Source: Cloeon dipterum (lineage: Eukaryota; Arthropoda; Insecta; Ephemeroptera; Baetidae). From it: a stretch of 64,000 bases of DNA. A model generated the notes under the pieces. It saw only the letters and a list, made by a program, of their open reading frames with translations. It was not told the DNA's origin and did no database searches. The stretch is from positions 31,004,545 to 31,068,544 of the forward strand of contig NC_088790.1 of assembly GCF_949628265.1 (NCBI RefSeq). Direction: 5' to 3'. Below are positions 22,104-55,267 of the stretch, in pieces; position 1 is the stretch's first letter; each line of letters starts with the position of its first letter. The translations under genes were made by a program, and so were the position numbers.

Positions 22104-24165
22104 TTATAAGCACTGTTTAATAAGGCAGCCTCTTCCGTGCAGAATTTCAGAGGCGATTCTCAAAATGGGCATGAGCCCGCATCCGCATTTGTTTTCGACG
22201 TCGTCGTCCCGAGAGCGTGCGTACATCAGTCCACCCATTCCAATTGACTGGAAAAATCCAATCTGGTGTAAAATCTGGTTTTTATTCCGTTTATAAGACG
22301 TTTTATTTAATTTAACCTTTTCTTTTAGAGAATTGTAGTCTTCGTAAGCGTAGACGTGCGTCTTGTTGTGAGCAAAGTTTCCGTCATTGTCGTTTAAAAT
22401 AAATTTCCCCTTTTGACTGATTCACACACCTGGAGAATTTTTTAAGTGATTTTTGCATTATGAAATTTATTCGACATACTTCTACGATGCTGGTGTAGGA
22501 GGAAATATAGCTCTCATCCTTGTATTTGGGTTTGGGGTTCGGTTTCGCCAAGGTGTAAAGCGTGGAAACAGAGGAAAATCCGGCAAGAAACTTTTTCATC
22601 TTGGCCAAACCTAGATTTTTTCTTATTGTGGCCATGGAAAGCCGCTGAATTGATAAAATTACTTTATTAAACATACAAAACCTTAATGTTAACACTACCA
22701 TTTTGTTCAAGGATGAAGGGTATCCAAGGAAATCATTAAAAATGCCTTCGTAGAGGTAAGAGTGGAAGAAAAAGAAGTCGACTAGATTCCATAAATTTGG
22801 CAAATCGTATCCTGCATTTTTTTAAATTTATTAAATTTATTTTTGGTTAGTTTCAACGCACCTTGGGCTAGGGGTAAATCGACATGCGGCAACAATAAAA
22901 ACAGCAGCTTCCCGCGAGGCTTGGTGACATTGTACAGCTCTCTCATTAGCGTCACCAGGTTTTCTTTATCTTTTCTATTTCCCGCCGAGCAGTCAGACTG
23001 CAAATTATAATTAGAAAATATTCCAAGCCTCCCTCTAACTCCGTATTTTATACGTTTGGGCAGACGCTGTAGTGCCAAAAGACACTGATGCCGTCGAATT
23101 TGTTCACGTCCATGATTTCAACCATCTGGGTGATTATTTTTTTCCTCGAATCCACATCCGCAGCCACAATTGACCAGTTTCCAGCGTCCATTCCATTTTC
23201 TGCCTCCTGACTGCCGAAAGTAAGGATTGTTTTCACTCCCCGCACCTTTGAATATTCCTTCGCGGGCAGTTGTTTCTCTATATTTACAAAGATTTAGACG
23301 TGAAGAGATGTTGTTTCTAATTATTTTACTCATCACGCTGCGGATTGGATCGAATTTGATTTGTTCCGAGTTGTAAACGTGCCACGGACCAAACGCGACG
23401 TGCGTGCAAAGGTTGTGCTCCACGGCTGTCATTATGTTCGCGCCAAAATCTATGCTGAGTGAGGCAAAATTAAATTTGGAAATAATTTTAATTAATTAAC
23501 ATTACTGGCAGGTTTGAAATAAATTATTTTTATCCTAATTTATAAAATTCCCTTTTTAACTGTAGAGATATAAATTAAAAACATTTTAATTCAATTTGAA
23601 AATGAGATCTTCTTCTGAAACTCCTATTATTAATATATTTTTTCAAGGTATAGCTTTTAAATAGGTAATCAAGAAGAAATAAATATTATGTGTTTTTCCC
23701 AAAGGTTCGTAATTTCCAACAAAATTTAAGTTGTATGATTTTTTTCGATTATTTAAAATTTCCTGACTCGCGTTCAGATATACTTGGGATTAAAATCGCA
23801 AAGCATGACTTTCTGGTCTGATGAAATCAACGTTGGATGAAACGAATTATACGCGGTGCAATCCTCGTCAATAACTGGAAAAAATTAACTCCTGTATTGT
23901 AAGTAATTAAATTTTAAATTTGAATTATGTACATCCTCCAGTTTTGTAATTTGCGGTGCAAGATTTATTACTGAAGTGTAGGCCGATGCAATCCGAAATG
24001 CAGCTCGCCACATATTCGTCGAACGTCCTTTGCGTCGGTTCTACAGCAAAGGATAGCCTTTCTAGACGAAGAACCTAATTGAAAACCTCTCAAACTGAAT
24101 ATTTTAAACAATTTTAATATAATTATTACCAGAAGTATGGCCAGGGTTTTCACTCTGCTGTCCAT
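22104..24165 (-). pseudogene. GH18 chitinase-like gene G1, frameshifted in exon 9
   Basis: Ten exons: 24130-24165, 23933-24074, 23784-23874, 23330-23454, 23054-23277, 22862-22997, 22699-22811, 22480-22644, 22317-22429 and 22104-22262. The first eight read cleanly and encode a signal peptide (MDSRVKTLAILL), a Cys-rich extension and most of a GH18 barrel. The active-site strand reads FDGISVFWHYSVCPN, with His at residue 200 where the catalytic Glu belongs. Exon 9 lacks 7 bp present in the otherwise near-identical G5 (AATTTCACATTTATT is shortened), giving a stop at 22394-22396 and removing the last strand and C-terminal Cys motif. Exon 10 is still open in its old frame, so the break looks recent. 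A sequencing error is possible. Confidence 0.8.
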
Positions 24166-24230
24166 CGCTAGTATAATGCAATTATTCAGCGCTCTGCAGA
24201 TGATTTTTATATTATTTTATGAATTTTCAG

Positions 24231-24241
24231 AACATCCTGTC
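24231..24241 (-). promoter_or_regulatory. ACAGGATGTT promoter motif of G1
   Basis: ACAGGATGTT lies 66 bp upstream of the ATG on the coding strand. The motif or a close variant is found 45-100 bp upstream of all eleven GH18-like genes. It resembles an ETS-factor site. Confidence 0.5.
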
Positions 24242-25192
24242 GCCGCTCTCTCGCTCACGAGGGTCCGCACAAATGTTCGAGGAATTTTTTCCTCTATTGA
24301 GGCCAGTTGGTGAGCACAGAATACAGTATTTTGCAGGAATAAAAATTATGGGAATCATTTTTTTGTCAAGAAGATTTGTTTTAGCTGCCTAATCCTTTAT
24401 ATTTGTTAAATACATTTTTACAAGAGATGGCGAACTATTTAAATATTTTTAAAATATTATTTCCTGTTGGCCTTTTTTGTAATAAAATGACTTAATTTGT
24501 TGCATTTCGTTTAGTAAATAATTGATTCTTGATCAGAGTGCGGGTAAATGAGTACCATCTGGACACAAATGTGTGCTTGAAGAAATTATACTAGCCGCAC
24601 TGAAGGGCTGAAATGCGGCACAGCTTCTTACTTCTTCAAAGCACACTACGTAATAACGAGGTTGTTATTGCTTTTCAAGCACTGTATCCTTATTGAAAAT
24701 AAATATCTCACCGTTGGATAGGTCGCAACGAGAGGAATATTAAAAGTCAATCGCCAACCAATTAATTTTAAGGCAGGTTTCACTAGATTGTGATATTTGT
24801 CCACTTCAATCAATACGATTGATATGCAAATTTTGCATTGAATTTAAACTGAACAGAAATAATATATCCAAAATTTAAAAATGAATTTAAATAAAGTAAA
24901 AGAAAAAATGTTTTAAAATAATAAATAAAAAATTAAAAAAATGACGTCTTTATAATACACACAGCACTGCAGCTGCAATTTTGTTAAAATTCTCTAACAG
25001 ATCTCTAAATGTTATTGAAGCTAAAATCTGGAAATTCCCAGTAATCATTTCTGTTTCAATTGGCATCAAACTGTCGTAAAACTGCGCAAACTCACATCAA
25101 GCAGGACGTTCGGCCGGCCTAAAAATTAAAAAATATCACTCCGCTCCACAAATGAATGTAGCAATTTGTTGTGCTGAAAAAGGCAAAGCGAG

Positions 25193-27410
25193 ATGAAATT
25201 TATCGCAATTCTACTGGTAAACCTTTTTTATGATATTTAAATGTATTTTTTAAATTTTCAGTTATAGATTCTTCCTGTGCAAGGGTTGTCCCCGTGCATG
25301 GCACAACAGTCCTTCCAAGAAGCGTTGACGGGATATGTGAGGAGCTGCCTTGCGAACTGCCTCGGCTTGAAAAGTGGAAAAGTTTGTAACGTGGATTACA
25401 AAACTGGAGGAAGTATTTACGTAAAATCTTATTTTGGGCAAAATAACCTTTGAACTAAAGGCCCGGACGAGGATTGTGCTGTGACGAGGCCATTTCAACA
25501 GACCTTTCGCGTCTCAGACCAGAAAATCATGCTTTGCAGTTTACACAGAGAGTTCGTAAACTTAAACATATCCGAAGAAAAATTCTTAATTTGCTTTGCA
25601 GCCCTAATGAGTACCTCAGAATCAGGACGATGGTGGATTTGAACTTGTGCACGCATTTTACTTTCGGATCCTGGCATTGGTACAGCTCAAAAGAAATTAA
25701 GTTTTATCCGAACAGAAACGTTATAAGTTACAAATATTTTTTTTTTGTTTGAATTAATTAAATAATTCAAAAATTAGTAAGGGAAAGGCCGGGGAAGGAG
25801 TACGCACAACAACGCCGCGGCATAAAATGCATCATGATTTGTGGCAGGTCTGTATAATCAAATTAATTCAATCAACCCTGCTTTTAATAAGAGATTTACC
25901 CCTAAACCAACATCAGAGTGCGAATGCAAAGCGAGTGTGTGTCCTAAAAAACAAATAAGCACAAAATTTTGACTGGCTGCTTAAATTAAAAACATTTTAA
26001 ACATTCGCCAAGAGATTTTCATGAAAAATATAAAAAATAAAATCCACCAACATTTGACATATTCTGATCCGACGTATTTAAATTAAGAAAAAATATTAAA
26101 CATTTATTTACACCGAATTTATGTAGACTATTTGCTACTCAATTGCCGAGCATAATAATCGAATATTTTTACACATCCCTAACTATTAAATCTCAAGTGT
26201 GTTTTCAACGCCCAAAACACGAACCAAAAAAAAATCAGGAATGGATTTCCTATCGTAGAATCTCCCTTGTCTTTTTTGTTCTTATTTTAAATTGTCTTTT
26301 TATGAAGCCTGAGTTCTGATGAATGGTCCAAGGCGGCTGCGGATCAAAATTCAAGGAAGCAATTACTAGACCAAATGATCCAGATAATCGAGGAGGAAAA
26401 TTTTGATGGATTGGGCATTGGTTGGCAGTACAGGTGCCTGCCCAGATGTAAATTATTTTATTCATGAAGAAACTCGTTAAACAATTTTAAAATAAGGGTG
26501 ACTGTTCCAAAGGCAACAGAAAAGACAAGGAAAACTTAGTAACCCTGATGAAAGAACTTTACAAAATGACAAAGGAACGAGGGAAGTTGTTACTTTTGTT
26601 GCTGCCAAGTCCTGATGAGATCTTAGACGCAGGTGTGTCCTAATTTTATTTTTAATTTTAATCAATTAAATCTGATTTTAGGATACGATTTAAAGGCATT
26701 GTGGAATTCTGTCGACTACTTTTACATCTACACCTTTTTCTACGCCGGACTGTGGAACAATTATTTCGACTACCCAACGACTCTGTACAGAATTGTGCTC
26801 GGTTATCAACATATAAAAATGCATATTACTCATCTTATGATCATTTGAAGGGTGGAACCATCAATTCATTAAAAGGAAAAATCGGGCTCGCAAAAATGAG
26901 AAAGGTTCTCGGTGGGTTTGCTCCGCAAGCTGTCCTTTACGCTTTGGAACAACCAAATCCGAAGCCAGCATTTAGAAATCCTACTAAGAAAGATCTATCG
27001 TATTATTCAAACATGTCGGAAGTACGAATATTATTTTGAAAGGGAATTCCAATTATTCCTCGTCCTTAGGTGTGTCAAAAGGTTCAATCAGAAAATTACA
27101 AGATAGTGCTGGACGATTTAAAAAATAACTGCGCTCACAACACGACTCACACTTACGTTTATGAAGACTACAACACTCTCAAAGAAAAGGTTCGGTCCGT
27201 ATTTAAATAAATCACTCTCTAAAAGCCTGAATTTCTGTCTTTATTTAGATTAATCTTTTCAAAGTCAACGGAGTCGGTGGATTGGTTGTCGGAGAGTTGC
27301 TGGCAGATGATGAAATAAATAAATGTGGACGCGGTCCCATGCCGATACTTCGAATCTCCTCTGAACTTTTGCATGGCACTTCATGTATTATTAAACAATG
27401 TGTAAACTGA
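25193..27410 (+). pseudogene. GH18 chitinase-like gene G2, one-base insertion in exon 6
   Basis: Exons: 25193-25216, 25268-25412, 25461-25551, 25602-25726, 25778-25847, 26308-26447, 26497-26632, 26682-26794, 26851-27021, 27070-27189 and 27249-27410. Every exon matches the length of its counterpart in G3 and G4 except exon 6, which is 140 nt instead of 139. One extra G at 26433-26434 (TACAGGTGCC against TACAGTGCC in G3) shifts the frame in the active-site strand FDGLGIGWQY and leads to a stop. All downstream exons remain open and splice sites are intact, so the lesion is very young, polymorphic or an assembly error. Gln replaces the catalytic Glu. The N-terminus MKFIAILL is a signal peptide. 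Confidence 0.8.
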
Positions 27411-28280: not shown

Positions 28281-28292
28281 AAGCAGGATGTT
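28281..28292 (+). promoter_or_regulatory. GCAGGATGTT promoter motif of G3
   Basis: GCAGGATGTTTGGCCGG lies about 90 bp upstream of the ATG, within a block shared with G2 (25101, GCAGGACGTT) and G4 (31142). The block also contains ACTGCGCAAACTCGC. Confidence 0.5.
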
Positions 28293-28379
28293 TGGCCGGT
28301 CTAAAAATTAAAAAAATATCGAAATCTGCTCCGTCGTTTCAGATGTTAACAATTTGTACTGCCGAAAAGGCAAACCGAG

Positions 28380-30675
28380 ATGAAATTTATCGCCATTCTG
28401 CTTATTGTAAACCGTTGTTAAAAATTAAAATTTATATTCTAAATTTCAGTCAGATTCTTCCTGTACAAGGGTTGTCCCCGTGCATGCCAAGAAAATCGTC
28501 CCAAGAAGATTTAACGGGATCTGTGAAGAGCTGCTTTGCGAACTGCCTCGGCTTGAAAAGTGGAAAAATCTGTAACGTGGATTACAAAACTGGAGGAAGT
28601 ACGTCAAATCTTATTTTGGGCAAAATAACCTTTGAACTAAAGGCCCGGACGAGGATTGTGCAGTGACGAGGCCATTTCAACAGACGTCTCAGCTCTCAGA
28701 CCAGAAAATCATGCTTTGTACTTTACACAGAGAGTTTGTAAATTTATTCAAATGCAAAGAAAAATTCTTAATTTAATTTACAGCCCTAATGAGTACCGAA
28801 GAATCAGGACGATGGTGGATTTGAACTTGTGCACGCATTTTACTTTTGGATCCTGGTATTCGTACAACTCAACGGAAAATAAACTATATCCAAAGAGATC
28901 CGTTATAAGTATCAAATAATATTTTTCGACTAGATTTTATAAGTCAAAATCAGTAAGGGAAAGGCCGGGGAAGGAGTACGCACAACAACGCCGCGGCATA
29001 AAATCCATCATGGTTTTTGGCAGGTAATCAAACTAATTCTAATTTTAATTAAGAGAGTGCCAATGATTTTCCCCTAAAACAACATGTGGGAAACGTCGAA
29101 TTAACAAAAATCAGTTGAGAAATTTGCTATACGGCTTAAAAAGGATTTTTTTATTGTAAAAAACTCTAAAATGCAATTAACAATTTTTTTGACAACTCGC
29201 AATAATCAAAAGTATAAAAATTAATTTTTTTTTAAATTTACTCCTAAATTTGCAGCACTTGACCAAATTTTTATGGCATATTTTGATTCCTATGGTCAAG
29301 ATCTGTCCAACATGCAGGGAAATAAAATAGAATTTCAAGAAAGGAGACGTGTGAAAAGCATGCTTCCAACTTTTCTAGGGTTTGGAACTAAATTTTTCTC
29401 TTTGCTGCTATTTAAGACTTTGTGGCACAATTTTATCCTGTGACAAAAACTCTCTTTGTTTGAATATTACTATTTTTAAATTTTCTATCGTAGAATCTCC
29501 CAACAGTTCTTTTTTTCTAATTTTAAACTGTCTAAAATTGCTACACTTTTTATGAAGCCTGAATTCTGGTGAATGGTCCAAGGCGGCTGCGGATCCGAAT
29601 TCCAGGATGAAATTAATAGATCAAATGATCCAGATAATGGAGGAGGAAAAATTCGATGGCTTGGGCGTTGGTTGGCAGTACAGTGCCTGCCCAGATGTAA
29701 ATATTTTTTTGTTTTGCTCCTGATGAACTCGTGTTAAACAATTTGACTATAAGGGTGACTGTTCCAAAGGCAACAGAAAAGACAAGGAGAATTTAGTAAG
29801 CGTGATGAGACAACTTTTCCCAATGACAAAGAAACGAGGCAAGTTGTTAATTTTGTTGCTGCCAAGTCCTGATAAGTTCTTAGACGCAGGTTTGTCCTTT
29901 TAAACTTAGTGATTTTTAAAAATTAAATCTGATTTTAGGATACGATTTAAACGCATTGTTGAATTCTGTCGACTACTTTTACCTCTACACCTATCGCTAC
30001 ACAGGACTCTGGGAAAATTATTTCAACCACCCAACGACTCTGAACTACATTGTGCTTGGTTATCAGCGTATAAAAAAGCGTATTATGCTCATGTCATAAT
30101 CATTTCAAGGGTGGCACCATCAATTCATTGAAAGCAAGAATCGGGCTGGCAAAGATGAGAAAGGTGCTCGGCGGGTTTGCTCCGCAAGCTATCCTTTTTG
30201 CGTTGGAAAAACCAAATCCGAAGCCAGCGTTTAGAAATTCTATCAAGAAAGACCTATCATATAATGCGAACATGTCGGAAGTACGAATATTATTTTGAAA
30301 GCAAATTCCAATAATTCCTCATCCTTACCAGGTGTGTCAAAAGGTTGAAACAGAAAATTACAAGGTTGTGCTGGACGATTTCCAAAATAACTGCGCTCAC
30401 AACACGACTCACGCTTACGTTTTTGAAGACTTCAACACTCTCAAACAAAAGGTCTGGTCTTAATTTAAATAAAGCACTCTCTAAAAGCCTGAATTCATGT
30501 CTTTTATTTTTAGATTAATTTTTTCAAAGCCAACGGAGTCGGTGGATTAATTGTCGGAGAAGTGCTGGCAGATGACGAAGAAAATAAATGTGGACGCGGT
30601 CCCATGCCGATACTTCGAATCGCCTCGGAACTTCTGCATGGCACTGCATGCATTATTAAACAAATTTTAAACTGA
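28380..30675 (+). CDS. Secreted GH18 chitinase-like protein G3 (432 aa)
   Basis: Eleven exons: 28380-28406, 28454-28598, 28643-28733, 28784-28908, 28954-29023, 29558-29696, 29754-29889, 29939-30051, 30110-30280, 30332-30451 and 30514-30675, summing to 1299 nt. Residues 1-15 are a signal peptide (MKFIAILLIILPVQG). Residues 19-85 form a Cys-rich extension (CMPRK, SCFANCLGL, ICNVDYKTGG, DEDC). The GH18 barrel follows: strand 1 near DQKIMLC and LCTHFTFGSW, strand 4 FDGLGVGWQYSACPD (185-199), strand 6 around VDYFYLYTYRYTG, and strand 8 GVGGLIVGE. The catalytic Glu position holds Gln193 and the two preceding Asp are Gly, so chitin hydrolysis is not expected. NTTH is a glycosylation sequon. Role unknown; carbohydrate binding is an inference. 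Confidence 0.88.
29150..29390 (-). repeat. MITE-family fragment inside intron 5 of G3
   Basis: The intron carries the family core: TTTACTCCTAAATTTGCAGC, ATTTTTATGGCATATTTTGA, GGTCAAGATCTGTCCAACAT and TTTCAAGAAAGGAGACGTGT. Orientation matches 50573-51010. G4 has a related fragment at the same intron position. Confidence 0.6.
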
Positions 30676-31231
30676 TAGAAAGTGTTATGAGTGTCTGTAA
30701 AATACACCTATAACTGCTTCCACCTGCTATCTAACGAGAGGAATTAAAAAGGAGCTAAAATATCAATCACCACCAATCAAACATAATTTTAAAGTTATAC
30801 ACTTAGAAAATTACAGTTTTTTTTATTAGAATCATTATAATTTATATGCAAATTTTGTTTTCAATTTTTGTTTGTCGGAAATAGTTAATTTTGAGTTTTT
30901 AAATAAATTTTAATATACATAAAATAAGGGGTGCTCTTTCATAAAATAATGGAAAAATAGAATCACTTTAAATCATTATATGTACACCGCAGCTGCGATT
31001 TTGTTAGAATTTTTCATGAAGAATCTAAACGCTCTGTACTTCTTGTTACTTACAAAAATCTGGCAATAATTGTTCCCAATTCCCACCATTCATTTCTGTT
31101 TCGGCATCAAATTGCGGTACAACTGCGCAAACTCGCATCAAGCAGGATGTTCGGCCGGTCTAAAAAAACCCTCAAACTCCACTCCCTCGTTTCAGATGTA
31201 GCAATTTGTAGTGCTGAAAAGGCAAAGCGAG

Positions 31232-33449
31232 ATGGAATTTATCGCCATTCTGCTTATTGTAAACCATTTTTAAAATTTTAAATCTATTTTCTAAATTTTC
31301 AGTCAGATTCTTCCTGCGCAAGGGTTGTCCCCGTGCATGCCAAGAAAATCGTCCCAAGAAGAATTGACGGGATCTGTGAAGAGCTGCTTTGCGAACTGCC
31401 TCGGCTTGAAAAGTGGACAAATTTGTAACGTGGATTACAAAACTGGAGGAAGTATTTACGTAAAATCTTATTTTGGGCAAAATAACCTTTGAACTAAAGG
31501 CCCGGACGAGGATTGTGCTGTGACGAGGCCATTTCAACAGACCTTTCGTGTCTCGGACCAGAAAATCATGCTTTGTACTTTACACAAAAAGTTTGTATAT
31601 TTAAACATATTATCCAAAGAAAAATTCTTAATTTGATTTGCAGCTCTAATGAGTACCGAAGAATCAGGACGATGGTGGATTTGAACTTGTGCACGCATTT
31701 TACTTTCGGATCCTGGTATTCGTACAACTCAACGGAAAATAAACTATATCCAAAGAGAAACTTTATAAGTATCAAATAATATTTTTCGACTAAATTTTAT
31801 AACTCAAAATCAGTAAGGGAAAGGCCGGGGAAGGAGTACGCACAACAACGCCGCGGCATAAAATCAATCATGGTTTTTGGCAGGTCTTAATATAATCAAA
31901 TTAATTCATCAACCCTCAGTTAAGACAGTTCGAGCTGGAAATTTATTCTGCGGCTTGAAAATGATTTTTATTGCATAAGACTCTAAAGGCAGATTCATAC
32001 AGAGCGACAATTAAAAATTATTTGAATTGTTGGATGCGATAAACAATTTTTTATAAATTAAAATGGACCTTGCTAGAGTAAAAATTCAAATTATCTCAAA
32101 TTTTCTTTAAAATTTCCAGCGCTTGACCAAATTTGCTTAGCCGATAAAAAAAATTAATGAAAAATTTTGTAAATATTAATTAATTTTTTGTGGTTCGTTT
32201 CCATCTCGGTTTGTTTTCAACAACACAAACCAAAAAATCAGGAAGGTGCTAAATTAATTTTCTATCGTGGAATCTCCCAAGAGTTTTTATTTTTCTTATT
32301 TTAAATTGTCTAAAATTACTATAATTTTTATGAAGCCTGAAATCTGATGAATGGTCCAACGTTGCTGCGGATCCGAATTCGAGGATGAAATTAATAGACC
32401 AAATGATCCAGATAATGGAGGAGGAAAAATTTGATGGTTTGGGCGTTGATTGGCGGTTCAGTGCGTGCCCAGATGTAATTTTTGTTTGCTCCCGATGAAC
32501 TCCTGTTAAACAATTTTAAAATAAGAGTGACTGTTCCAAAGGCAAGAGAAGAGACAAGGAAAATTTAGTAACTCTGATGAGAGAGCTTTTCCCAATGACA
32601 AAGGAACGAGGGAAGTTGTTGCTTTTATTGCTACCAAGTCCTGACAAGATCTTGGACGCAGGTGTGTCCTAATTTTTTTGTTTTAATATTAATAAATTAA
32701 ATCTGATTTTAGGATACGATTTAAAGGCATTGTGGAATTCTGTCGACTACTTTTACATCTACACCCATGGCTACACAGGACTGTGGAACAATTATTTCGA
32801 CTATCCAACAACTCAATACTACATTGTGCTTGGTTATCAACTTTTAAAAGTGCATATTATGCTCATCTGATAATAATTTCAAGGGTGGCACCGTCAATTC
32901 ATTGAAAGGAAGAATTGGGCTCGCAAAGATGAGGAAAGTGCTCGGCGGGTTTGCTCCCCAAGTTATCCTTTATGCTTTGGAAAAACCAAATCCGAAGCCA
33001 GCATTTAGAGATTCTATTAAGAAAGACCGATCATATTATGCAAACATGTCGGAAGTACGAACTTTATATTGAAACGAAATTCCAATAATTATTCCTCTTC
33101 CTTTCCAGTTGTGTCAAAAGGTCCAATCAGAAAATTACAAAATAGTTCTGGATGATTTAAAAAATAACTGCGCTCACAACACGACTCACGCTTACGTTTA
33201 TGAAGACTACAACACTCTCAAAGAAAAGGTTCGGTCCTAATTTAAATTAATAACTCTCTTAAAGCCTGAATTCATGTTTTTATTCAGATTAATCTTTTCA
33301 AAGCAAGTGGAGTCGGTGGATTGGTTGTCGGAGAGTTGCTGGCAGACGATGAAATAAATAAATGTGGACGTGGTCCCATGCCGATACTCCGAATCGCCTC
33401 GGAACTTTTTCATGGCACTTCATGTATTATTAAACAATGTGTAAATTGA
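31232..33449 (+). CDS. Secreted GH18 chitinase-like protein G4 (432 aa)
   Basis: Eleven exons: 31232-31258, 31307-31451, 31500-31590, 31644-31768, 31814-31883, 32336-32474, 32526-32661, 32713-32825, 32884-33054, 33109-33228 and 33288-33449, identical in length to G3. The signal peptide starts MEFIAILLI. The active-site strand is FDGLGVDWRFSACPD, so this is the only paralogue that keeps the last Asp of DxxDxDxE, but Arg193 replaces the Glu. The C-terminal half matches G2 and G3 closely and ends ELFHGTSCIIKQCVN. AATAAA lies at 33484. It forms a head-to-tail trio with G2 and G3, spaced 0.8-1.0 kb apart. Expected to be secreted and non-catalytic. Confidence 0.88.
31930..32130 (-). repeat. MITE-family fragment inside intron 5 of G4
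   Basis: It shows AATTATTTGAATTGTTGGAT, GATAAACAATTTTTTATAAA, AGTAAAAATTCAAATTATCT and AGCGCTTGACCAAATTTGCT, in the same order as in the complete elements, but diverged and without ends. Confidence 0.55.
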
Positions 33450-35883: not shown

Positions 35884-36049
35884 CGTTGGTGTGCTGTAAA
35901 GCGCTCGAACTAAGCTCTCTGTATGGGATTTTCATATATTTCCAATTTTCATAACTTCCTGTCTCCGCTCTCTCGCTCACTAAGGCCTCTATTGCACAAA
36001 TTTTCGACGGATTTTTACTCTATTGAGGTCAGTTGATGTGCATAGATCG

Positions 36050-43290: not shown

Positions 43291-43304
43291 TTTAGAATCA
43301 ACTT

Positions 43305-44517: not shown

Positions 44518-46312
44518 TCAATTCAAACACTGTTTCAAAGAGCAGCCTCCGCCGTGCAAAAGTTCAGAGGCGATTCTCAGCATCGGCATCACACCACAGC
44601 CGCATTTGTTTTCGTCGTCGTCCGACGTAACGCCGGAGTAAATCATTCCTCCCAATCCATTCGATTTGAAATAATTAACCTGAGATTTTAGAATTTAAAC
44701 TTCTATTCGGCAGTAACTGAATAAGAAAAACCTTTTCTTTCAGAGTATTGAAGTCTTCAAAAACGTAAACGTGCGTGGTGTTGTGAGCAAGGTTGTTATT
44801 TATATCTTCCAAAATGACAGAGTAATTTTCCCTTTGGACCTTTTCACAGAGCTAGACAAGAATTAATTAATTAATTGACAATAATTATAAAATTATACGA
44901 ACGTTTAACATGCTGGTGTAATACGAAAGGGCGGGAAACACTGGGTCCCTGTATTTCGGCTTAGTTTTCATTTTGACCAAAGCGTAAAGCGTGACACTCG
45001 AAGTAAATCCAGCAATCACCTTTCTCATCTTGGCGGCGCCCAGTTTGTCTTTTATATAACCTATTGACATTTTCTGGAGTTTTTTAATAATCATTAAAAT
45101 TTTGAATCGTTTTTAATTTTAACAATTTAACATACGACGTTTAATAAATTTGTCGAGTAGCCTAAATAGTCGTTCCAAGTTCCTTCGTAGGTGTACGTGT
45201 TGACGTAAAAATAGTCCACGTTATTCCACAATGCGTTCATATCATATCCTGCATTATTTAATTAAATAATTTCTAAAATTTCAGGACCAATACCTTGGAT
45301 TAAAATTCCGTCAGAGGTCGGAAGGATTAAAAATAACAACTTTCCGCGTTCCTTAATTGCTTTGTAAAGTTCCTTCATCAAAGAAACTAAATTTTCTTTA
45401 TCCTTTTTGTTGCCTTTTGTACATTCTTGCTGAAAATTAATTAATAATTCATTTCTACTCTTTATGAAAGAAATTAAACTCACATTCGGGCATCCACTAT
45501 ACCACCAATAAATACTTAAAGCGTCAAATTCGTTTTCTTCCATCAATTCAACCATTTGGTTAATTAATTTTCCTCTAGTTGCAGCATCTGCAGCCGCTAT
45601 GGACCAATTGCCAGGGGAAATTCCAGTAGATTGACTGATGCTTCCGAAATTTAAAATCGTCTTTGCTCCGTGTTCCTGTGCGTGTTCCTTCGCCAGTAAT
45701 TGATCGGCTGAATTTTTGTTTAAACTGGTAAGAATTATCTCTAAAAAATAAAAAATCTTACGAATAATATTCGTCCGAGGCTCAAACGTTTTCGTTAGCG
45801 AATTGTAAAAATACCACGAGCCGAACATGAAGTGCGTACACAAGTTCATGTCCGCGACTTTCTCTACTTTTTGATACGCATTATTGCTGGAGAAAAATTA
45901 AATTAAATTCGTTTGAATTTTCCTCAGGAATTATGCAAACTTTGGATTTATGTCGCAAATCATGATTTTTTGATTAGCCAACAGCGGAGTTTGTTCGAAT
46001 GGCTTGTTCATGGCGCATTTTTCTCCCAAAACTGTGTTTTTTAATTAGATTATTACCATTTTAAAATTAAATTCCGACTTACGGGTTCCAGTATCGAAGT
46101 CCAAGGTGCAATTCTTTTTGTTTGAACTCAATTCGAGACATTCCGCGATGCACGCCGTCATGTACTCCCTTTTCGGATCGGCGGGACAATTTTGAAGAGA
46201 ACCTCGAAGCATGAAAATCTGCAATTATTTATAATTAACCGAAATTGATCGAAATAAGTCATCAATTTCGCACTAGTAAAATGGCAAATAATGTGCTCTC
46301 TCTGGCCGTCAT
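44518..46312 (-). CDS. Secreted GH18 chitinase-like protein G8 (438 aa)
   Basis: Ten exons: 46274-46312, 46083-46218, 45941-46031, 45762-45886, 45484-45707, 45294-45429, 45136-45248, 44903-45073, 44732-44851 and 44518-44679, summing to 1317 nt. The N-terminus MTARESTLFAILL is a short hydrophobic signal. The extension has CPADPK, ACIAECLEL, NCTLDF and GEKC. Strand 3 is KTILNFGS. The active-site strand is FDALSIYWWYSGCPN, with Trp199 where Glu is expected. Strand 6 is VDYFYVNTYTYEGTW, and strand 8 GLGGMIYSGVTSDDDE resembles the GLGGxMxW...DD of active chitinases without the Trp. Intron 4's acceptor after AAAAATTC is the only one that keeps frame. AHNTTH carries a sequon. Predicted secreted lectin-like protein, by inference. 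Confidence 0.88.
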
Positions 46313-46356
46313 AATTTGCAGTTTGATATGCTCACCCGCGATGCCTCAGTTCTGCG

Positions 46357-46382
46357 AACATCCTGCCTCGGCGCTTGCGCTT
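46357..46382 (-). promoter_or_regulatory. GGATGTT plus GCGCAAGCGC promoter pair of G8
   Basis: On the coding strand AAGCGCAAGCGCC is followed by GAGGCAGGATGTTCGCAG, 45-70 bp upstream of the ATG. The same pair, in the same order, precedes G9 (49301-49330), G10 (52863-52890) and G11 (55322-55350). Confidence 0.55.
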
Positions 46383-47470: not shown

Positions 47471-49238
47471 TCACTTTAAACACTGCTTCAAAATACAACC
47501 TCCGCCATGCAGAAGCTCAGCGGCAATTCTAAGAATCGGAAAGACGCCACACCCACAAATTAATTCATCATCGTCCATGTGGAGGCTAGCGTAAAACATT
47601 CCTCCCAAGCCATTCGCTTTGAAATAGTTGACCTGCAAATTATAATTAATAATTCCCTCCTATTAAATTTTTAACTAAAACCTTTTCTCTCAGCGTATTT
47701 AGATCTTCATAAACGTAAACATGCGTTTTGTTGTGCGCAAAGTTATTGTTGGCGTCGTCCAAAATGACGCTGAAATTTTCTGATTTGACCAATTCGCAGA
47801 CCTGGCCAATAGGAAATTAAAATACTGTAAAATTTAATGCCGATAATTACGTACTGTAAAAATTCCTGCGTAGGAAGATTGCGAAGAAGCGGTGAAAACA
47901 GGATCCATGTATTTCGGCCTGGGATTTTGTTTCACCAAGGAATACTGAGCCACGGTCGAGGTGATCCCTCCGATCACTTTATTCATCCTTGCGTGGCCCA
48001 GTTTTTCCCTTATTGCAAATATAGATATTTTCTGCAATATTATTTTGTTATAAAAAAAGAGTTATTGATTCCTTTTGGAACTTGCAATATTGTACACGTT
48101 TGCTACGTAGCCTAAATAATTGTTCCAAATTCCCTCGTACAGATAGGTCGGAACGTTGAAGTAGTCGACGTAATTCCACAGTTCGTTCATATCGTAGCCT
48201 GATGTATTAAAAAATTAATAATAAATTTAACCTCTTCACAACGCACCTAGGTTCAAGACTCTTTCAGACGCTGGTGTAATTAAAAACAGCGAAATTCCTT
48301 TCTCTTTCGTTTCTGAATGAATTTCCCTCATCAAATACACTAAATTTTCCTTGTCCTTTTTGTTTCCCCTTGCGCAGTTATTCTAAAAGGAATAAAATTA
48401 TAATTAAAAGTTTAATAAAATCCTGGATTTACTTCTGGGCACGCGCTGTACCTCCAATAAATATTTATAGCGTCAAATTTGAATTCTTCCGTCTCATTGA
48501 TGATTTGGTCAATTAATTTTCTCCTGGAGTCCACGTTCGCTGTCAAAATGGACCAGTTACCAGGAGAAACTCCAAATCTGTATTCAACGTGGCCAAAACT
48601 CAAAATCGTCTTGAATCCGCGATTCTGGACATATTCCTTGAACGGCCATTGATTTTCTAAAAATTTTCTGTTATTTAAAGTCATTATCACGAAAATTAAT
48701 TTGAATTTTACGAATATTGTCCGTCCTTTGTTCTAAATTTTTACTAATTGGATTATAAAGATGCCAAGGACCAAAGTGAAAGTGCGTGCACAGGTTAAAA
48801 TCCGTGATTTTCGGCAGTTTGAGGTACGCGTCATTGCTGTAGGAAAGAATTTAGTTCAAATTCGATTTTAAATCAGTGAGAATACTTGGGAGGAACCTCG
48901 CAAACCATGATTTTTTGATCCGTGACCTCTAGGGTTTTTTGGAACGGCCTGTTCACGACACAGTTTTCGTCGATGACTACAAATGCAAATAAATAATTCC
49001 CAACGAAATTAATTAAATTGTAAACTTGCATCCGCCAGTTGTGTAGTTAACGGTGCAGATCTTTTTGATATTCAAATTGAGACATTGTGCAATGCAGGCC
49101 ATCATGTAGTCCCTTTTCGGCTCGGGACAAGCTTGGAAAACCCCTTGACGAATGAGAACCTGGAGAAATGTTAATAATTTGGTAAACAGTAATAAATTTC
49201 ACCAATATTATGGCGAATTGTTCCACTGTGACCGTCAT
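47471..49238 (-). CDS. Secreted GH18 chitinase-like protein G9 (437 aa), with two GC-AG introns
   Basis: Ten exons: 49203-49238, 49030-49159, 48886-48976, 48712-48836, 48433-48656, 48247-48382, 48086-48198, 47855-48031, 47682-47801 and 47471-47632, summing to 1314 nt. The donors after exons 2 and 7 are gcaagt rather than GT. Paralogues have GT at the same positions (gtaagt in G11, gtaggt in G10), and no nearby GT preserves the frame. The signal starts MTVTVEQFAIIL. The active-site strand is FDAINIYWRYSACPE with Arg196 replacing Glu. Strand 3 is KTILSFGH. The sequon here is NKTH. The last exon ends GCILKQCLK. Predicted secreted, non-enzymatic. Confidence 0.87.
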
Positions 49239-49974
49239 TGTTTGCAGTTGCCGAGCAATTGAAGCGAAATGGCCGTAGTAATGATGTCTCAGTATTCTGC
49301 GAACATCCTGTTACAGACGAGCTTGCGCTTTAATTGACAGACAGAAATTCAAGCGCAAATTAAAATTGAAAATTTTTACTGGTCAGTTACTGCACAACAA
49401 TTGTTAATAATTTTTAAAATTTTGTTAGCCAGTGGTTAATTTCATTTAATTATTGTACCTTTTGTATTCATGATTTAATCAAAATTCCATCTTTTTTCAT
49501 ACTCACAGCATTAGCAATATTAAGATCGATGTTATTTTAACGCTGATTTGGCAAAAATTATATATTTTTTTCTAAAATGATTAGAAAAATTAAACTTTAA
49601 AGAGCTTTGATTGCTTTATTCCATTAAAAATCACGTTTTAAAATTGAAAACGTAAATCCTTGTAGCTTTTAATTTAAACTGTTGTACTCATACATTTTTA
49701 ATTATTAATTTTAACCTTTTTAATTCAAAAAAATATCAGTAATCCAAACTACAAACTGATTTTTATTTTTCATAATCTGTGCTCATCACATCCCGTGGGA
49801 TGAGCTCCCAATATCAGCGCCGAGTGAATAAAATGCAAGCAGAGGAGCTTTGGGCCGAATGTGGCAATCTTTTCGCCTCCTCGTACGCCAGAAATTTGTC
49901 CCCAAAAATAGGCCCTTAAGCTAATAGAGAATTTAGAGTGACTAAAATAAAATAATTTAATTTCTTTTGAACAT

Positions 49975-52799
49975 TCATTTTAAACACTGTTTCACAATGC
50001 ATCCTGCTCCGTGCAGGAGTTCAGAGGCGGCTCTGAGAATTGGGAAGGCACCACACCCACATATTTGCTCACTATCGTCCGCGTGAAGGGGCGCGTAAAA
50101 TATTCCACCCATCCTATTCGATTTGAAATAGTTGATCTGAAAATTATTATTTATGTTCTAATTCACTCCTATTACATTTTTCATCCCAACCTTTTCTCTC
50201 AGAGTGTTTAGATCTTCAAAAACGTAAACACGCATGGTGTCGTGGGCAAAGTTATTGTTGACGTCGTCTAGAATAACTTTATATTTTTCAAACTGAATCT
50301 TTTCGCAGACCTGGACAAAGATAATTAGAAAAATTGTATAATTTGTGAATTTTTCACTTTAAAAATGCCGGTGTTGGAAGATTGCGACGCTGCGCCAAAG
50401 GTAATATCCTTGAATTTAGGCTTTGCATTTGGAATTATCAAGGTATACTGCGCGACGGTGGAGGTGATCCCTCCGATCACTTTATGCATCCTTTCTATGC
50501 CCAGAATTTCCCTTATTGCAACAATGGACACTTTCTGCAATAAATTTTAATTGATTTTAATTCATTCTATTTGAAGTGGAATGATACTGGGCAACAATTG
50601 AAATTGATTTAAATTGTTGGATGCCTTAAACATTTGACCGATAAACAATTTGTTCAACAATTTGCAATAATAAAAAATGACCTTCCTACAGTAAAAATTC
50701 AAATTTTGCCAATTTTCTCCAAAATTTACAGCTTTCGAACATATTTTCTTGGCATATTCCGATTCCTCTCGTCGAGATCTGTCCAATTGTGTGTCCCACT
50801 AATTGGGGAAACTCTTGGTTTTGAAATTAAATCGGATTTCAAGTAAGGAGACAGCCATTACCATTTGAAAAGCACGCTAACTTTCCAGCCAATTTTCTCA
50901 AAAAATTACAGCGCTCCTTAGGTCAATTTAGACTTTAACTGAATCCTAAGGGATGAGTTTTTGCATTGGCAACAAGCATTTTCCAGGCTTTTCCAGTATC
51001 ATTCCTCTTTAATTAATACCTACAATATTGTAAATGTTTGCTGTGTAGCCTAAATAATTATTCCAAATTCCATCGTACAAGTAGGTGAGCACGTAAAAGT
51101 AGTCCACATAATCCCACAATTCGTGCAAATCATAGCCTTTAATTAAATTTTTTCTTAATGCACTAAATATTAGAATTTTTTCACTACGCACCTTTATTTA
51201 AGACTGCTTTCGAAGCAGGTAAAATTAAAAATAGCGACTTCCCTCTCGCTTTGATTGCTTTATAAAGTTCTCTCATCAGAGAAACCAAATTTTCCTTGTC
51301 CTTGCTGTTTCCCTTTGCGCAGTTATTCTAAATTTAATCGAATAAAATTAAAAATATCCCAGGTTTAAAAATCAAATGCTGAATTTACGTCCGGGCACGA
51401 GCTGTACCACCAATAAATGCTGATGGCATCAAATTCGAGTTCTTCCGTCTTGAGAATCATTTGTTCTATCAGTTTCGCTCTAGTGACTGCGTCGGCGGCC
51501 AGAATGGACCAATTGCCGGGGGAGAGTCCGAATTCAGAGTTGCTGTGGCCGAAACTCAAAATTGTCTTTGCACCACGTTGCTGCGCGTATTCCTTCACTG
51601 GCCATTGCTTCGCTAAAATGGTAATTCTTTGCATTAGACATTAGACGGTGGTGTCTTTTAATTTAAATTAGAAAAAATGGAAAAAATGTAAATGGGGATT
51701 TTCAAATTATTTATAAATTAATTATTTAAATAATTTAAATTTGGTATGAACAGTGGACCTTCTTTGCGAAGATAAAATCGACCCAAATAAGTAGTTTTTT
51801 AAATACTCACCGCAAACTTAATAGCTTTCTAACGCACATTTTTTAGTATTATTTTTTATAAATTGACAACGTAATATTGCCTTATTAATATATACATATA
51901 TTTTAATTAACAATATTTTTGTCTTAAATTTTAATTATTTTAATATTTATAATAAAAAAACTAAGAGCATTATTTTTAACTAAAAATATAAATACAATTT
52001 ATTCTATTTTAAATTAAAAAAATATATATTTTCTGGTTAAAGATATTCCAAACAGATATTATCAGCAAATAATGTTGTTTAAAATATTGATTATTTAAAA
52101 ATTGCTTATATCAAGAAAATCTAAATATTAAATTCAGTTACGATTGATCATAAAATTAGATTTAATTTATTTCTCAAACTTTAAATGCCAGAAATGTGAA
52201 TTTAATAAGAGGCGGTATTTTTTGAGGCTGGAAGAAAATAAAAATCTCACGAATATTGTCGGTCCTCGGTTCAAACGTTTTGTCAACTGGATTGTACAAG
52301 TGCCACGAACCAAAGTGAAAATGCGTGCACATGTTGTAATCCGAGATTTTCTTTCCTTTGAGGTACGCGTCATTGCTGTTAATCAAGATTTTAATAAGTT
52401 ACAAATATTCTCGTTCAAAATAAATTCAATACGAACTTTGGATGGACCTCGCAAACCACGATCTTTTGGTCACTGACCTCCAAGGTTTTTTGGAATGGCC
52501 TGTTTATTTCACAGTTTTCTTCAGCGACTTTGTGTAATTCAGAAATTAAAAAGAAAATTTATCTTTTAATAAATACATACAGCCGCCAGTTGTGTAGTTG
52601 ACCGAGCAGATTTTTTTGCTCTCTAAATTGAGACATTGGGCAATGCAAGTCTTCATGATGTTGTCCTTCAATTCCGGTCCGTGACATTTCTCAGACAGCA
52701 CGCGAAGAATTAAAACCTACGTGATATAATTTTGATTTGGCCGAAAAATGAATCAAGTTTTACTAATATGATGGCGAATTGTTCCACTCTGACGGTCAT
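49975..52799 (-). CDS. Secreted GH18 chitinase-like protein G10 (439 aa), MITE in intron 7
   Basis: Ten exons: 52764-52799, 52581-52716, 52437-52527, 52251-52375, 51389-51612, 51192-51327, 51024-51136, 50358-50534, 50191-50310 and 49975-50136, summing to 1320 nt. The signal is MTVRVEQFAIIL. The extension has CHGPEL, TCIAQCLNL, ICSVNYTTGG and EENC. The active-site strand is FDAISIYWWYSSCPD, with Trp198 at the Glu position. Intron 4 (51613-52250) is enlarged and AT-rich, and intron 7 (50535-51023) is almost entirely a complete MITE-like element. Unlike its paralogues the strand-8 segment reads AHDTMRVYVF, losing the NTT sequon. Predicted secreted and catalytically inactive. Confidence 0.87.
50573..51010 (-). 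mobile_element. Complete MITE-like element in intron 7 of G10 (438 bp)
   Basis: The ends GAAGTGGAATGATACTGGG and CCAGTATCATTCCTCTTT are inverted repeats, as in the copy at 21211-21648. The interiors align throughout in opposite orientation. The insertion leaves the flanking donor (gtaggt) and acceptor (TTATTGCAG) of the host intron intact. The equivalent introns of G9 and G11 are about 60 bp, so the insertion is specific to this copy. Confidence 0.8.
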
Positions 52800-53239
52800 A
52801 ATTTGCAGTTGACGAGCGATTGAAGCGCACGCCAATATAATTATTTCTCAATTCTGTTTTATTACATCCGGTTTGCAGCGCTTGCGCGTCTATTGCGACA
52901 TTGACACGGAGCCAGAGGAATTCAAGATCAAATTCAATTTGAAACTCTTTCAGCCGTCCCATTGCGTAACAGATTCACAAATTAATTTTAATAATTTCTA
53001 GCCCTCTTATATTTTGTTTTTTTTTTTTAATTTAAATATGTATTTACTTGAAAATTAAATTTACCCTGCTGGCTCATAAAAATAAACAAGTTTGGGATAA
53101 ATTTTGAACCCCAGATTGCTTTAAAAAATTTTATTTTTAATTATGTTGACAAGAAAATTGAAGATTGATATAGGGCGACAAGTTGAAATTATTATTTTTA
53201 CAGGATTGCCATGAATATATGGTTAATCGTATTTTAAAT

Positions 53240-53360
53240 TAAAATAATTTGTTCTAAAATGCGCAATAATGGAGAGAGGAAACTCTACTACAGTGAAAAA
53301 TACGCTTTGCCAATTTCCATCGCTGGAACAAATTTTCTTGGCGGATTTTGATTCATCTCG
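53240..53360 (-). repeat. Diverged MITE-family fragment between G10 and G11
   Basis: Shows TTGCCAATTTCCATCGCTGG, AATTTTCTTGGCGGATTTTG and ATTCATCTCGACTTGAAATT, matching part of the core of 50573-51010. Confidence 0.45.
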
Positions 53361-53471
53361 ACTTGAAATTAATTAATTTTTTATTTTTCAACAAGGATTT
53401 CCGCGATTCCACTGTTAAATTGAATGAATGCGTTTCTTTTAAGGGTGAAATTTTATTTTTAAAACTGAAAT

Positions 53472-55267
53472 TCAATTTCTCGGCGTTGATTTTAAACACT
53501 GTTTCACGACACAGCCTCCGCCGTGCAGAACTTCAGCTGCAATTCGAAGAACCGGCATGAATCCGCATCCACATTTGCTTTCGTCGTCGTCTGACAGAAT
53601 ACTTGAATAAAACAATCCTCCCAAACCGTACAATTTGAAAAATTCAATCTGAAATTTATAGTAAAAAACATGTTATTATATAATTAAAACGTCAAAACCT
53701 TTTTTCTCAGAGTGTTAACGTCTTCATAAACGTAAACGTGCGTTGTGTTGTGAGCTAGGTTACAGTTTTCGCCGTCTAATATGACGGAGTAATTCTCTAT
53801 TTGAACCGCTTGGCAGGCCTATTAAACAGTAAATAGGGGAGGAATAATAATTTTATTGCAAATATACTCGTAAAATATTGGTGGAGTGGGAAAGCGAAGA
53901 TGCGGTGTAAACTGGATCCTTGTATCTGGGCCTAGACTTTGGAATCGCCAAAGCAAAAAGCGTGACAGTCGAGGTGAACCCTCCAATCACTTTGTTCATC
54001 CGTGCAACGCCTAGTTTTCCTTTTATTGCATCCATGGATATTTTCTGGAATTTATTAAAATTGGGAATTTCATGGAAATATGATTTGGAGAGAAAAAAAT
54101 CAGACAAGGTAATGTAAATTTGCCGAGTAGCCTAGATAATTGTTCCAAGTCCCCTCGTAATTATAGGTACACACGTAAAAGTAGTCGACGTAATTCGACA
54201 GCTCAGGCATGTTATAACCTTAAATATTTTTTATTTAAATTATATTGATAATGCTTTTCAACTGACCCAGGCTTAAAGTCCTTTCAGAAGACGGAATGAT
54301 TAAAAACAAATTTTTCCTTCTCTCTTTAGTGGCGTTGGACAGTTCCCTCATCAATAAAACTAAATTTTCCTTGTCCTTCTTGACTCCCTTTCCGCAATTA
54401 TTCTATTCTCAAATTAATTATTTGCCAGTCAAATTTAAGACCTAGAAATTCACATCTGGGCATCCGCTGTACCACCAATAAATTGCCAAAGCGTCGAATT
54501 TGAGTTCGTCCGTCTGGTTGATAATTTGGTCCACTAATTTCCTCCTGGCGTCCCCGTCCGCGGCCAAAATGGACCAATTTCCAGGGGAAACTCCGTGTTT
54601 GTAATTGCTGCTGCCCACACTCAAAATCGTCTTCACCCCGCGTCGCTGGGCGTATTCCTTAAAAGGCAGTTGCTTGGCTAAAAATGTCCATGATAAGTCT
54701 TTTTTAAATCAGGAAATTAAAATCTTACGAATGTTATCTGTTCTTTGTTCTAAATTTTTACTGACTGGATTGTAAACATGCCATGGACCGAAATGGAAGT
54801 GCGTGCAAAGGTTGTAGTCAGAGATTTTCATCACTCGAAGGTAATCATCATTGCTAATAATAAAAATTAATTAAAAATTTTAAATTTCTGAGATACTAAC
54901 TTGGGAAGCACGTCGCAAACCATGATTTTTTGGTCAGAAATTAAAGAGGTTTTATCGAATGGCCTGTTTCCAACACAGTTTTCGTCGATGACTGAGTTTC
55001 AAAGTTTAAATTAATTTTAAATTTATAGCAAATTTGCAAACTTACACCCGCCGGTTGTGTAATTGACAGTGCAGATTTTCTCGTTGCTCAAATTTAAACA
55101 TTCGGCGATGCAGGCCAGCATGTAGTCCCTTTTCGGCTCGGGACACATCTCAGACAGTCCACGTAGAATGAGAATCTAATTATTTTAAAGAATGCTCCAA
55201 AAAGGAAAAAGTTGATTTGAATTCGCACCGATAGTATGGCGATGAGGAATTCCACTCTGACAGTCAT
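53472..55267 (-). CDS. Secreted GH18 chitinase-like protein G11 (443 aa)
   Basis: Ten exons: 55229-55267, 55046-55175, 54901-54991, 54729-54853, 54454-54677, 54267-54402, 54106-54218, 53868-54044, 53699-53818 and 53472-53648, summing to 1332 nt. The signal starts MTVRVEFLIAILS. The extension has CPEPK, ACIAECLNL, ICTVNYTTGG and DENC. The active-site strand is FDALAIYWWYSGCPD with Trp197 at the catalytic position. The stop codon used by the paralogues after KQCLK is lost, so the protein carries five extra residues (STPRN). Strand 8 reads GLGGLFYSSILSDDDE. It is the outermost member of the array; nothing similar follows downstream. Predicted secreted and non-catalytic. Confidence 0.88.

What the first reader, a model, noticed from the sequence alone, without database searches (positions are those of the whole stretch)
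22104..55267. Eleven-gene array of GH18 chitinase-like proteins, all without the catalytic glutamate
Every copy keeps the GH18 fold landmarks (LCTH strand 1, KTILxFG strand 3, FDxxxxxW strand 4, GLGG strand 8) and a signal peptide, yet the Glu after the invariant Trp is gone in all eleven: His, Gln, Gln, Arg, Gln, His, Arg, Trp, Arg, Trp, Trp from G1 to G11. Nine copies are intact, so the inactive form is being maintained. This looks like an expanded family of secreted, non-enzymatic GH18 proteins, possibly immune or glycan-recognition factors.
Basis: partly seen in the sequence, partly recalled or inferred. Interest (0 to 1): 0.82.

Follow-up and report, generated by a model that had tools for sequence, protein, structure and literature searches.

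The report
Tandem array of dead chitinase-like genes
A stretch of what looks like an arthropod genome carries eleven neighbouring genes for probably secreted proteins shaped like chitin-cutting enzymes, all without the cutting residue and most of the sugar-binding pocket, yet mostly kept intact by selection, so they probably do a non-enzymatic job outside cells.

Summary
Spliced alignment recovers eleven GH18 genes (22104-55267), three on +, eight on -. Nine are intact; G1 and G2 carry frameshifts. All pass Pfam's GH18 cut-off, and the catalytic Glu is replaced by H,Q,Q,R,Q,H,R,W,R,W,W as stated. Additions: (1) the second Asp of DxxDxDxE is lost in 11/11, the third in 10/11, the beta-6 Asp in 11/11, and the beta-8 segment has no Trp in 10 of 10 readable copies, so canonical chitin binding is probably gone too. 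(2) Nearest solved relatives are insect group II (Cht10-type) domains. (3) Selection is purifying: omega 0.31, omega = 1 worse by 208 log units; no positively selected class. (4) A decayed twelfth copy lies at 43.3-43.8 kb. (5) CAGGATGTT (ETS-like) or a near match sits 53-96 bases before every start codon, conserved where flanks are random. Best reading: a secreted, non-enzymatic, probably co-regulated family acting by binding other molecules at barriers or in immunity; that step is inference. Precedents exist (nematode CHIL, insect IDGF, wasp venom), so this is a new variant of a known kind. Species unidentified.

The parts
22104..24165 (-). G1, GH18-like gene, broken: 7-base deletion and stop near 22402, before beta-8; catalytic Glu position = His
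25193..27410 (+). G2, GH18-like gene, broken: 1-base insertion near 26432 after the catalytic strand (assembly error not excluded); Gln
28380..30675 (+). G3, intact GH18-like gene, 432 aa; Gln
31232..33449 (+). G4, intact GH18-like gene, 432 aa; Arg (third motif Asp kept)
34033..35883 (-). G5, intact GH18-like gene, 440 aa; Gln
36284..38016 (-). G6, intact GH18-like gene, 433 aa after correction; His
39038..41078 (-). G7, intact GH18-like gene, 435 aa; Arg
43320..43760 (-). Decayed twelfth copy: leader scrap (about 43698-43725), insertion-domain exon (43578-43664), terminal scrap (43334-43384)
   Evidence: tblastn best E 1.5e-4; sequence
44518..46312 (-). G8, intact GH18-like gene, 438 aa; Trp
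47471..49238 (-). G9, intact GH18-like gene, 437 aa; Arg
49975..52799 (-). G10, intact GH18-like gene, 439 aa; Trp
53472..55267 (-). G11, intact GH18-like gene, 443 aa (last five residues read by eye); Trp
24231..24239 (-). promoter element of G1, CAGGATGTT
25102..25110 (+). promoter element of G2, CAGGACGTT
28284..28292 (+). promoter element of G3, exact
31143..31151 (+). promoter element of G4, exact
35953..35961 (-). promoter element of G5, CAGGAAGTT
38084..38092 (-). promoter element of G6, exact
41151..41159 (-). promoter element of G7, exact
43893..43901 (-). same element before the relic, CAGGACGTT
46357..46365 (-). promoter element of G8, exact
49302..49310 (-). promoter element of G9, exact
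52863..52871 (-). promoter element of G10, CCGGATGTA (two mismatches; place computed from its distance to the ATG)
55322..55330 (-). promoter element of G11, GAGGATGTT

Best explanation
The window holds a complete-looking tandem cluster of chitinase-like genes in what is probably an arthropod genome. Each gene encodes a probable signal peptide, a Cys-rich leader of roughly 50-65 residues, and one subfamily-A GH18 barrel whose closest solved relatives are the catalytic domains of insect group II (Cht10-type) chitinases. SHOWN: all copies lack the catalytic Glu; the second Asp, most of the third Asp, the beta-6 Asp and the beta-8 Trp are gone too; the scaffold (12 Cys invariant in the nine intact copies, structural Gly and Trp, the first Asp) is under purifying selection; copies arise and die (two frameshifted copies and one relic); every copy has the same 9-base element or a near match shortly before its start codon. 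INFERRED: the ancestor lost catalysis before the duplications; the proteins are co-expressed under one factor (ETS-like site) and secreted; they act without hydrolysis, by binding proteins or ligands other than chitin outside cells, at a barrier surface (cuticle, gut lining), in haemolymph or in a secretion, as other chitinase-like proteins do. The former active site is no longer held constant and is free to differ between copies.
For: Models and residues (G6); GH18 in 11 of 11 copies. Profile against PDB sequences: the two group II domains 128.4 and 111.8 bits, the next entry (5gzu, labelled 'Chitinase') 97.1, OfChtIV 86.9, chitotriosidase 74.0, Ym1 61.3, chitinase-3-like protein 1 up to 60.7. 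Both group II domains align without a gap over 83 of 83 residues from beta-4 to beta-6, including a C-x4-C pair, while OfChtIV (77 for 80 residues) and 3wkz (80 for 81) need gaps. M0 omega 0.31, lnL -9945.7 against -10154.2 at omega = 1. 92 of 417 gapless columns invariant. All 7 exact CAGGATGTT in 64 kb are GH18 promoters on the gene's strand; between-clade identity 0.91 inside, 0.28 in flanks; best shared 9-mer (at most one mismatch) in 10 of 11 upstream stretches against 3-5 in 40 mononucleotide shuffles. Precedents: PMC7932123, PMC2685406, PMC8314478 (passages), PMC12090808 (abstract, passages).
Against: No transcripts, protein or species: expression, secretion and function are untested. 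Signal peptides rest on hydrophobicity only. Group II descent rests on scores against the few chitinases in the PDB, not on a tree with arthropod chitinases. No class of sites with omega above 1 was found, which one might expect of a pathogen-facing family. The excess of change at pocket positions is not significant on a set chosen without regard to loss (p 0.06). 'Same promoter element' could partly reflect common descent, although the flanks are randomised.
Confidence: 0.55

Rival explanations
1. Chitolectins: the proteins still bind chitin or chito-oligosaccharides in the old groove, as YKL-40 or Ym1 do, and act as chitin sensors or chitin-coating proteins.
For: GH18 fold kept; beta-6 Tyr kept in 7 of 11 copies; other dead chitinases bind chitin (stated in PMC7932123, passage).
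Against: Beta-8 segment without Trp in 10 of 10 readable copies, beta-6 Asp lost in 11 of 11, GGW turn lost in 11 of 11, and the replacements differ between clades; no chitin-binding module found by Pfam in the nine intact copies.
Confidence: 0.15
2. A gland product: the array makes venom, saliva or seminal proteins that act on prey, host or mate, like the dryinid wasp's IDGF-like expansion or mosquito AgBR1.
For: Probable signal peptide in 11 of 11, tandem amplification, shared promoter element that would suit one gland; precedents PMC8314478, PMC12090808, PMC4595131 (passages).
Against: No expression data; species unknown; no positively selected class of sites. This is a variant of the best explanation with another site of action.
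Confidence: 0.2
3. A dying gene family: leftovers of chitinase duplications without function.
For: Two frameshifted copies and one relic; catalytic residues lost.
Against: Nine intact frames; omega = 1 rejected by 208 log units; 12 invariant Cys; conserved promoter element.
Confidence: 0.04
4. A new enzyme: the barrel has taken up another reaction with His, Arg or other residues at the old site.
For: Fold and scaffold conserved; polar residues (His, Arg, Gln) at the old Glu in 8 of 11 copies.
Against: No residue other than the first Asp is constant at the old site, and Trp sits at the Glu position in three copies; an enzyme would be expected to keep one constellation.
Confidence: 0.03

Closest known systems
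Insect group II chitinases (Cht10-type; Ostrinia OfChtII domains, PDB 5y29 and 5y2a)
   Same: Best profile and pairwise matches; C-x4-C pair and ungapped beta-4 to beta-6. Cht10 has several GH18 domains, some inactive (PMC9933517, passage); Dm-CHT10 is listed with domains lacking the Glu (PMC2685406, passage).
   Different: Cht10 is a large multi-domain enzyme with chitin-binding domains, one gene in most insects studied; here one GH18 domain per gene, no other Pfam domain in the nine intact copies, eleven genes, all without the Glu.
Insect imaginal disc growth factors (group V) and AgBR1
   Same: Single-domain, secreted GH18 proteins without activity; large expansion known (47 in the wasp Gonatopus, PMC8314478, passages); AgBR1 does not bind chitobiose or chitinhexaose (PMC12090808, abstract).
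   Different: There one or two motif residues are changed (Glu to Gln, Asp to Ala); here two or three of four besides different replacements in each clade. None of the 60 PDB matches shown of 128 is labelled IDGF.
Caenorhabditis CHIL chitinase-like proteins
   Same: Large family (at least 28) of catalytically dead chitinase-like proteins, induced by oomycete exposure and thought to modify the cuticle (PMC7932123, passages).
   Different: Nematode family; sequences not compared here; no link to pathogens shown for this array.
Daphnia CHT1/CHT2 and arthropod clade Ib chitinase-like proteins
   Same: Single GH18 domain, no CBM14, no active-site Glu, grouped with immune-related genes (PMC2685406, passages).
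   Different: Two genes in Daphnia pulex rather than an array of eleven; sequences not compared here.

Membership tests
GH18 (Pfam PF00704) | Profile score above the gathering cut-off | tested here: met
   9 of 9 intact copies (G8 first); pieces of G1 and G2
GH18 subfamily A | alpha+beta insertion between beta-7 and alpha-7 | tested here: inconclusive
Active GH18 chitinase | DxxDxDxE with the catalytic Glu | tested here: not met
   Glu 0 of 11, second Asp 0 of 11, third Asp 1 of 11, first Asp 11 of 11
Chitin-binding chitolectin | Groove residues of the -1 subsite: beta-8 Trp, beta-6 Tyr and Asp, beta-3 GGW (list recalled) | tested here: not met
   Trp 0 of 10 readable, beta-6 Asp 0 of 11, GGW 0 of 11; beta-6 Tyr 7 of 11. 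Binding itself not tested
Group II (Cht10-type) lineage | Closest relatives are group II GH18 domains | tested here: inconclusive
   Best group II domain 31 bits above the next other entry, second domain 15 bits above it; ungapped beta-4 to beta-6; no tree with arthropod chitinases possible
Group II (Cht10-type) architecture | Several GH18 domains with chitin-binding domains | tested here: not met
   One GH18 domain and no other Pfam family at E 0.01 in 9 of 9 intact copies
IDGF (group V) | Closest relatives are IDGFs | tested here: inconclusive
   No entry labelled IDGF among the 60 shown of 128 matches; no tree
Secreted protein | N-terminal signal peptide | tested here: inconclusive
   11 of 11 have a hydrophobic stretch (9-residue Kyte-Doolittle mean 2.7-3.8) near the N-terminus; highest 19-residue mean in the rest 0.9-1.6, highest in G9; no signal-peptide predictor on hand

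The most novel reading that the evidence does not exclude
A group II (Cht10-type) chitinase domain was isolated, killed and amplified into a co-regulated family of secreted recognition proteins whose former active site has become the variable surface: the barrel mouth is diversified copy by copy on a rigid, disulfide-rich scaffold under one ETS-like switch, an arthropod counterpart of nematode CHIL proteins that arose from a different chitinase group.
Probability: 0.25. Interest if true: 0.65.

Novelty: new variant of a known kind. Interest (0 to 1): 0.42.

Why it matters
Dead chitinases recur as growth factors, immune modulators and venom or saliva proteins, but how they work is mostly unknown. 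Eleven paralogs that share a scaffold and a promoter element but differ at the former active site are a natural mutational series for asking what the pocket and the surface do. If the group II origin holds, chitinase-like proteins were recruited from a second insect chitinase group besides the IDGF line.

Tried and rejected
Whole-genome context: none is held for this window, so the species, its other GH18 genes and an active parent gene could not be sought. tRNA scan empty. Viral contigs: 42 pattern matches, none confirmed as a relative. Positive selection: M2a no better than M1a, M8 over M7 by 2dlnL 1.15: not supported. Pocket hypervariability: eight lost pocket positions have mean omega 0.66 against 0.39 overall (permutation 0.00025), but they were picked because they are lost, and one of them has gaps in two copies while the control drew gapless columns only; a 12-residue canonical set chosen without regard to loss gives 0.50 against 0.39, p 0.06 (11 gapless columns: 0.47 against 0.37, p 0.10), so it is not claimed as shown. 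Upstream-ORF reading of CAGGATGTT (it contains ATG): rejected by eye on the sequences, because the frames differ between copies and G2 and G5 lack the ATG. Cys-rich leader as a known domain: one sub-threshold Pfam match (FAZ1_cons) in 2 of 5 segments, none in the PDB for the one segment searched. A mini-exon in G2 and G3 was an artefact. Novelty in print: eight searches of an open-licence library; among the papers listed I saw no report of a dead array derived from group II, but one search listed 20 of 267 papers, only eight papers were opened (abstract or passages), and most subscription papers are not held.

Dropped rows: the codon models used the nine intact copies only (G1, G2 and the relic left out). 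3 of 36 pairwise dS values were saturated and gave no ratio. Alignment A1, used, has the uncorrected G6 (an error of about a dozen residues at one exon junction). M0, M1a and M2a were rerun with the corrected G6; the pairwise table, M7/M8, the pocket tests and the protein tree were not.
Full report
WHAT IS THERE. The window looks eukaryotic: short GT-AG introns, no long ORFs, no whole genome held. Repeats of 100-300 bases recur on both strands between 22.1 and 55.0 kb. I wrote a spliced protein-to-genome aligner and started it with a model of G8 made by eye. It recovered eleven copies, refined with the signal-peptide exon seen in the upstream sequences. Nine encode full-length proteins of 432-443 residues (G11's last five residues read by eye); exon lengths and phases are nearly the same throughout. 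G2-G4 have one extra intron between beta-3 and beta-4 and a shorter loop; G6 and G7 have exons 3 and 4 fused. The G6 exon 7/8 junction was first misplaced, then corrected. Pfam GH18 is found in 9 of 9 intact copies and in the pieces of G1 and G2.

BROKEN COPIES. G1 has a 7-base deletion relative to G5 and a stop directly after it, so its product would lack beta-8. G2 has a 1-base insertion relative to G3 just after the catalytic strand; an assembly error cannot be excluded. Between G7 and G8 lies a twelfth, decayed copy at about 43320-43760 (-): scraps of the leader (RGCVAECLGF), the insertion-domain exon (RGNFTISL..DGNFAHNETHAF) and the C-terminal exon (DDAAANSCGCG) remain (best tblastn E 1.5e-4; sequence). 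Spliced alignment of that region scored 138-170 against 111-123 for the reversed sequence, so only the local matches carry weight. The promoter element stands before it (43893-43901). Among the 25 best tblastn rows outside the eleven genes, the others have E 0.27 or worse; one at 42724-42795 (-), E 1.0, looks like a further C-terminal scrap.

THE ACTIVE SITE. The strand FDGLDLDWEYP of the group II chitinase 5y29 is FDxxxxxWx(Y/F)S here. Over G1-G11: first Asp kept in 11 of 11; second Asp replaced by S,G,G,G,S,K,N,S,N,S,A; third Asp replaced by F,G,G,(D),F,H,N,Y,Y,Y,Y, kept only in G4; Glu replaced by H,Q,Q,R,Q,H,R,W,R,W,W. The MTYD of beta-6 has lost its Asp and its Met in 11 of 11 and keeps its Tyr in 7 of 11 (nine intact copies, G1 and G2 by eye). 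The beta-8 segment has no Trp in the ten copies where it can be read, and the GGW turn after beta-3 is gone in 11 of 11. That these residues form the -1 subsite is recalled from work on chitotriosidase and YKL-40, not tested here. Hydrolysis by the known GH18 mechanism is therefore excluded, and canonical chitin binding is unlikely. Within beta-4 the structural positions (F, D, I/V, W, S) are nearly constant while the former catalytic ones vary. Tested formally the excess is not secure: p 0.00025 on the lost positions, p 0.06 on a 12-residue set chosen without regard to loss.

SCAFFOLD. Twelve Cys are invariant in the nine intact copies, two more are present in seven and eight. A C-x4-C pair after beta-4 matches both group II domains in the PDB; the Cys of strands 1 and 2 and the pair C349/C413 (G5 numbering) match canonical GH18-A disulfides from recall. 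Five Cys sit in a leader of roughly 50-65 residues between signal peptide and barrel that reaches no Pfam cut-off in 5 segments and matches no PDB chain in the one searched. A hydrophobic N-terminal stretch is present in 11 of 11.

SELECTION AND HISTORY. With the nine intact copies M0 gives omega 0.31; fixing omega at 1 costs 208 log units. My likelihood code reproduces IQ-TREE's value on the first alignment (-9967.518 in both). M1a puts 59% of sites at omega 0.16, M2a adds nothing, M8 over M7 is not significant. Pairwise NG86 dN/dS is 0.13-0.46 in the 33 of 36 pairs not saturated, highest for G6/G7 (uncorrected G6). Tree: (G1,G5) with (G6,G7), and (G2,G3,G4) with (G8,(G11,(G9,G10))), the order within G2-G4 open. 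G1 and G5 are sisters although the inverted G2-G4 block lies between them. As no copy keeps the Glu or the second Asp, one loss before the duplications is the simplest history (inference).

PROMOTER ELEMENT. Upstream sequences of different clades are otherwise unlike, but each copy has CAGGATGTT or a near match 53-96 bases before its ATG, on the gene's strand: 7 exact, 3 with one mismatch (G2, G5, G11), 1 with two (G10). The exact 9-mer occurs 7 times in 64 kb and all 7 are these promoters; with one mismatch allowed there are 16 matches, 10 in GH18 promoters, one at the relic, five elsewhere, against 12.7 expected by chance (17 of 100 shuffles reach 16), so it is the exact matches, their places and strand that carry weight. 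Between-clade identity is 0.91 within the nine bases and 0.28 in the flanks; the best shared 9-mer (ACAGGATGT, at most one mismatch) occurs in 10 of 11 upstream stretches, against 3-5 in 40 mononucleotide shuffles. GGA and GT are invariant; the base between is T or A in 9 of 9 intact copies and C in G2 and the relic, while broken G1 keeps T. GGA(A/T) is the ETS core (recalled); whether an ETS factor binds is untested.

WHAT IT IS AND HOW IT LIKELY WORKS. Identity as GH18 proteins without the catalytic residues is well supported. The nearest solved relatives are insect group II domains: 128.4 and 111.8 bits against 97.1 for the next entry (5gzu, labelled 'Chitinase') and 86.9 for OfChtIV. I think the array descends from a Cht10-type domain; without a tree that is not proved. 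Cht10 carries several GH18 domains, some inactive, and a single-domain group II protein exists in Diaphorina, with another suggested in Bemisia (PMC9933517, passages). Mechanism (inference): extracellular, non-enzymatic binding of proteins or other ligands. Precedents: C. elegans chil, at least 28 genes, induced in epidermis and thought to modify the cuticle (PMC7932123, passages); Daphnia and other arthropod chitinase-like proteins linked to immunity, single-domain and without the Glu (PMC2685406, passages); AgBR1, which binds neither chitobiose nor chitinhexaose and alters macrophage pathways (PMC12090808, abstract and passages); 47 Idgf genes in a dryinid wasp and 29 chitinase-like genes high in its venom gland, 8 of them with predicted signal peptides (PMC8314478, passages); a cricket nuptial-gift protein with Gln for Glu (PMC4595131, passages). 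Birth-and-death evolution of GH18 is long known (PMC1945033, passages). In Rhodnius 1 of 9 GH18 genes lacks the catalytic residues and is put in group V (PMC9574080, passages).

VERDICT. The kind of thing is known; new is the combination: a probable group II rather than IDGF origin, deeper loss of the active site with different replacements in different clades, a Cys-rich leader, and a shared promoter element. Function remains inference.

Noticed in passing
window 1738-2193, 5122-5592, 7859-8371, 12305-12760 (+): A second tandem family: four Cys/His-rich zinc-finger-like exons, 43-51% identical to each other, with only sub-threshold Pfam hits (UBZ, C2H2, IBR) in two of the four, and none in the other two.
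   Followed up: partly
window 9423-10877 (-): Minisatellite-like repeat read as a repeated Arg/Lys/Gln-rich unit (KQQGRTHKRQKHRRARPCWKLRRKGK).
   Followed up: no
window 21209-21656 and 50564-51012: Inverted pair of repeats, 90% alike, perhaps a mobile element; the second copy fills most of intron 7 of G10 (50535-51023).
   Followed up: partly
window 42724-42795 (-): Possible further C-terminal GH18 scrap (tblastn E 1.0), downstream of the relic.
   Followed up: no
window 25102-25110 and 43893-43901: The two C variants of the promoter element (GGAC) are both at broken copies, while 9 of 9 intact copies have GGAT or GGAA; broken G1 keeps GGAT, so this is only suggestive.
   Followed up: partly
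upstream of G2-G4 and G8-G11: A second possible motif, GCGCAA(A/G), some 15-25 bases before the main element in seven copies (seen by eye).
   Followed up: no
G6 intron 2; G9 introns 2 and 7: GC-AG introns in the gene models.
   Followed up: no
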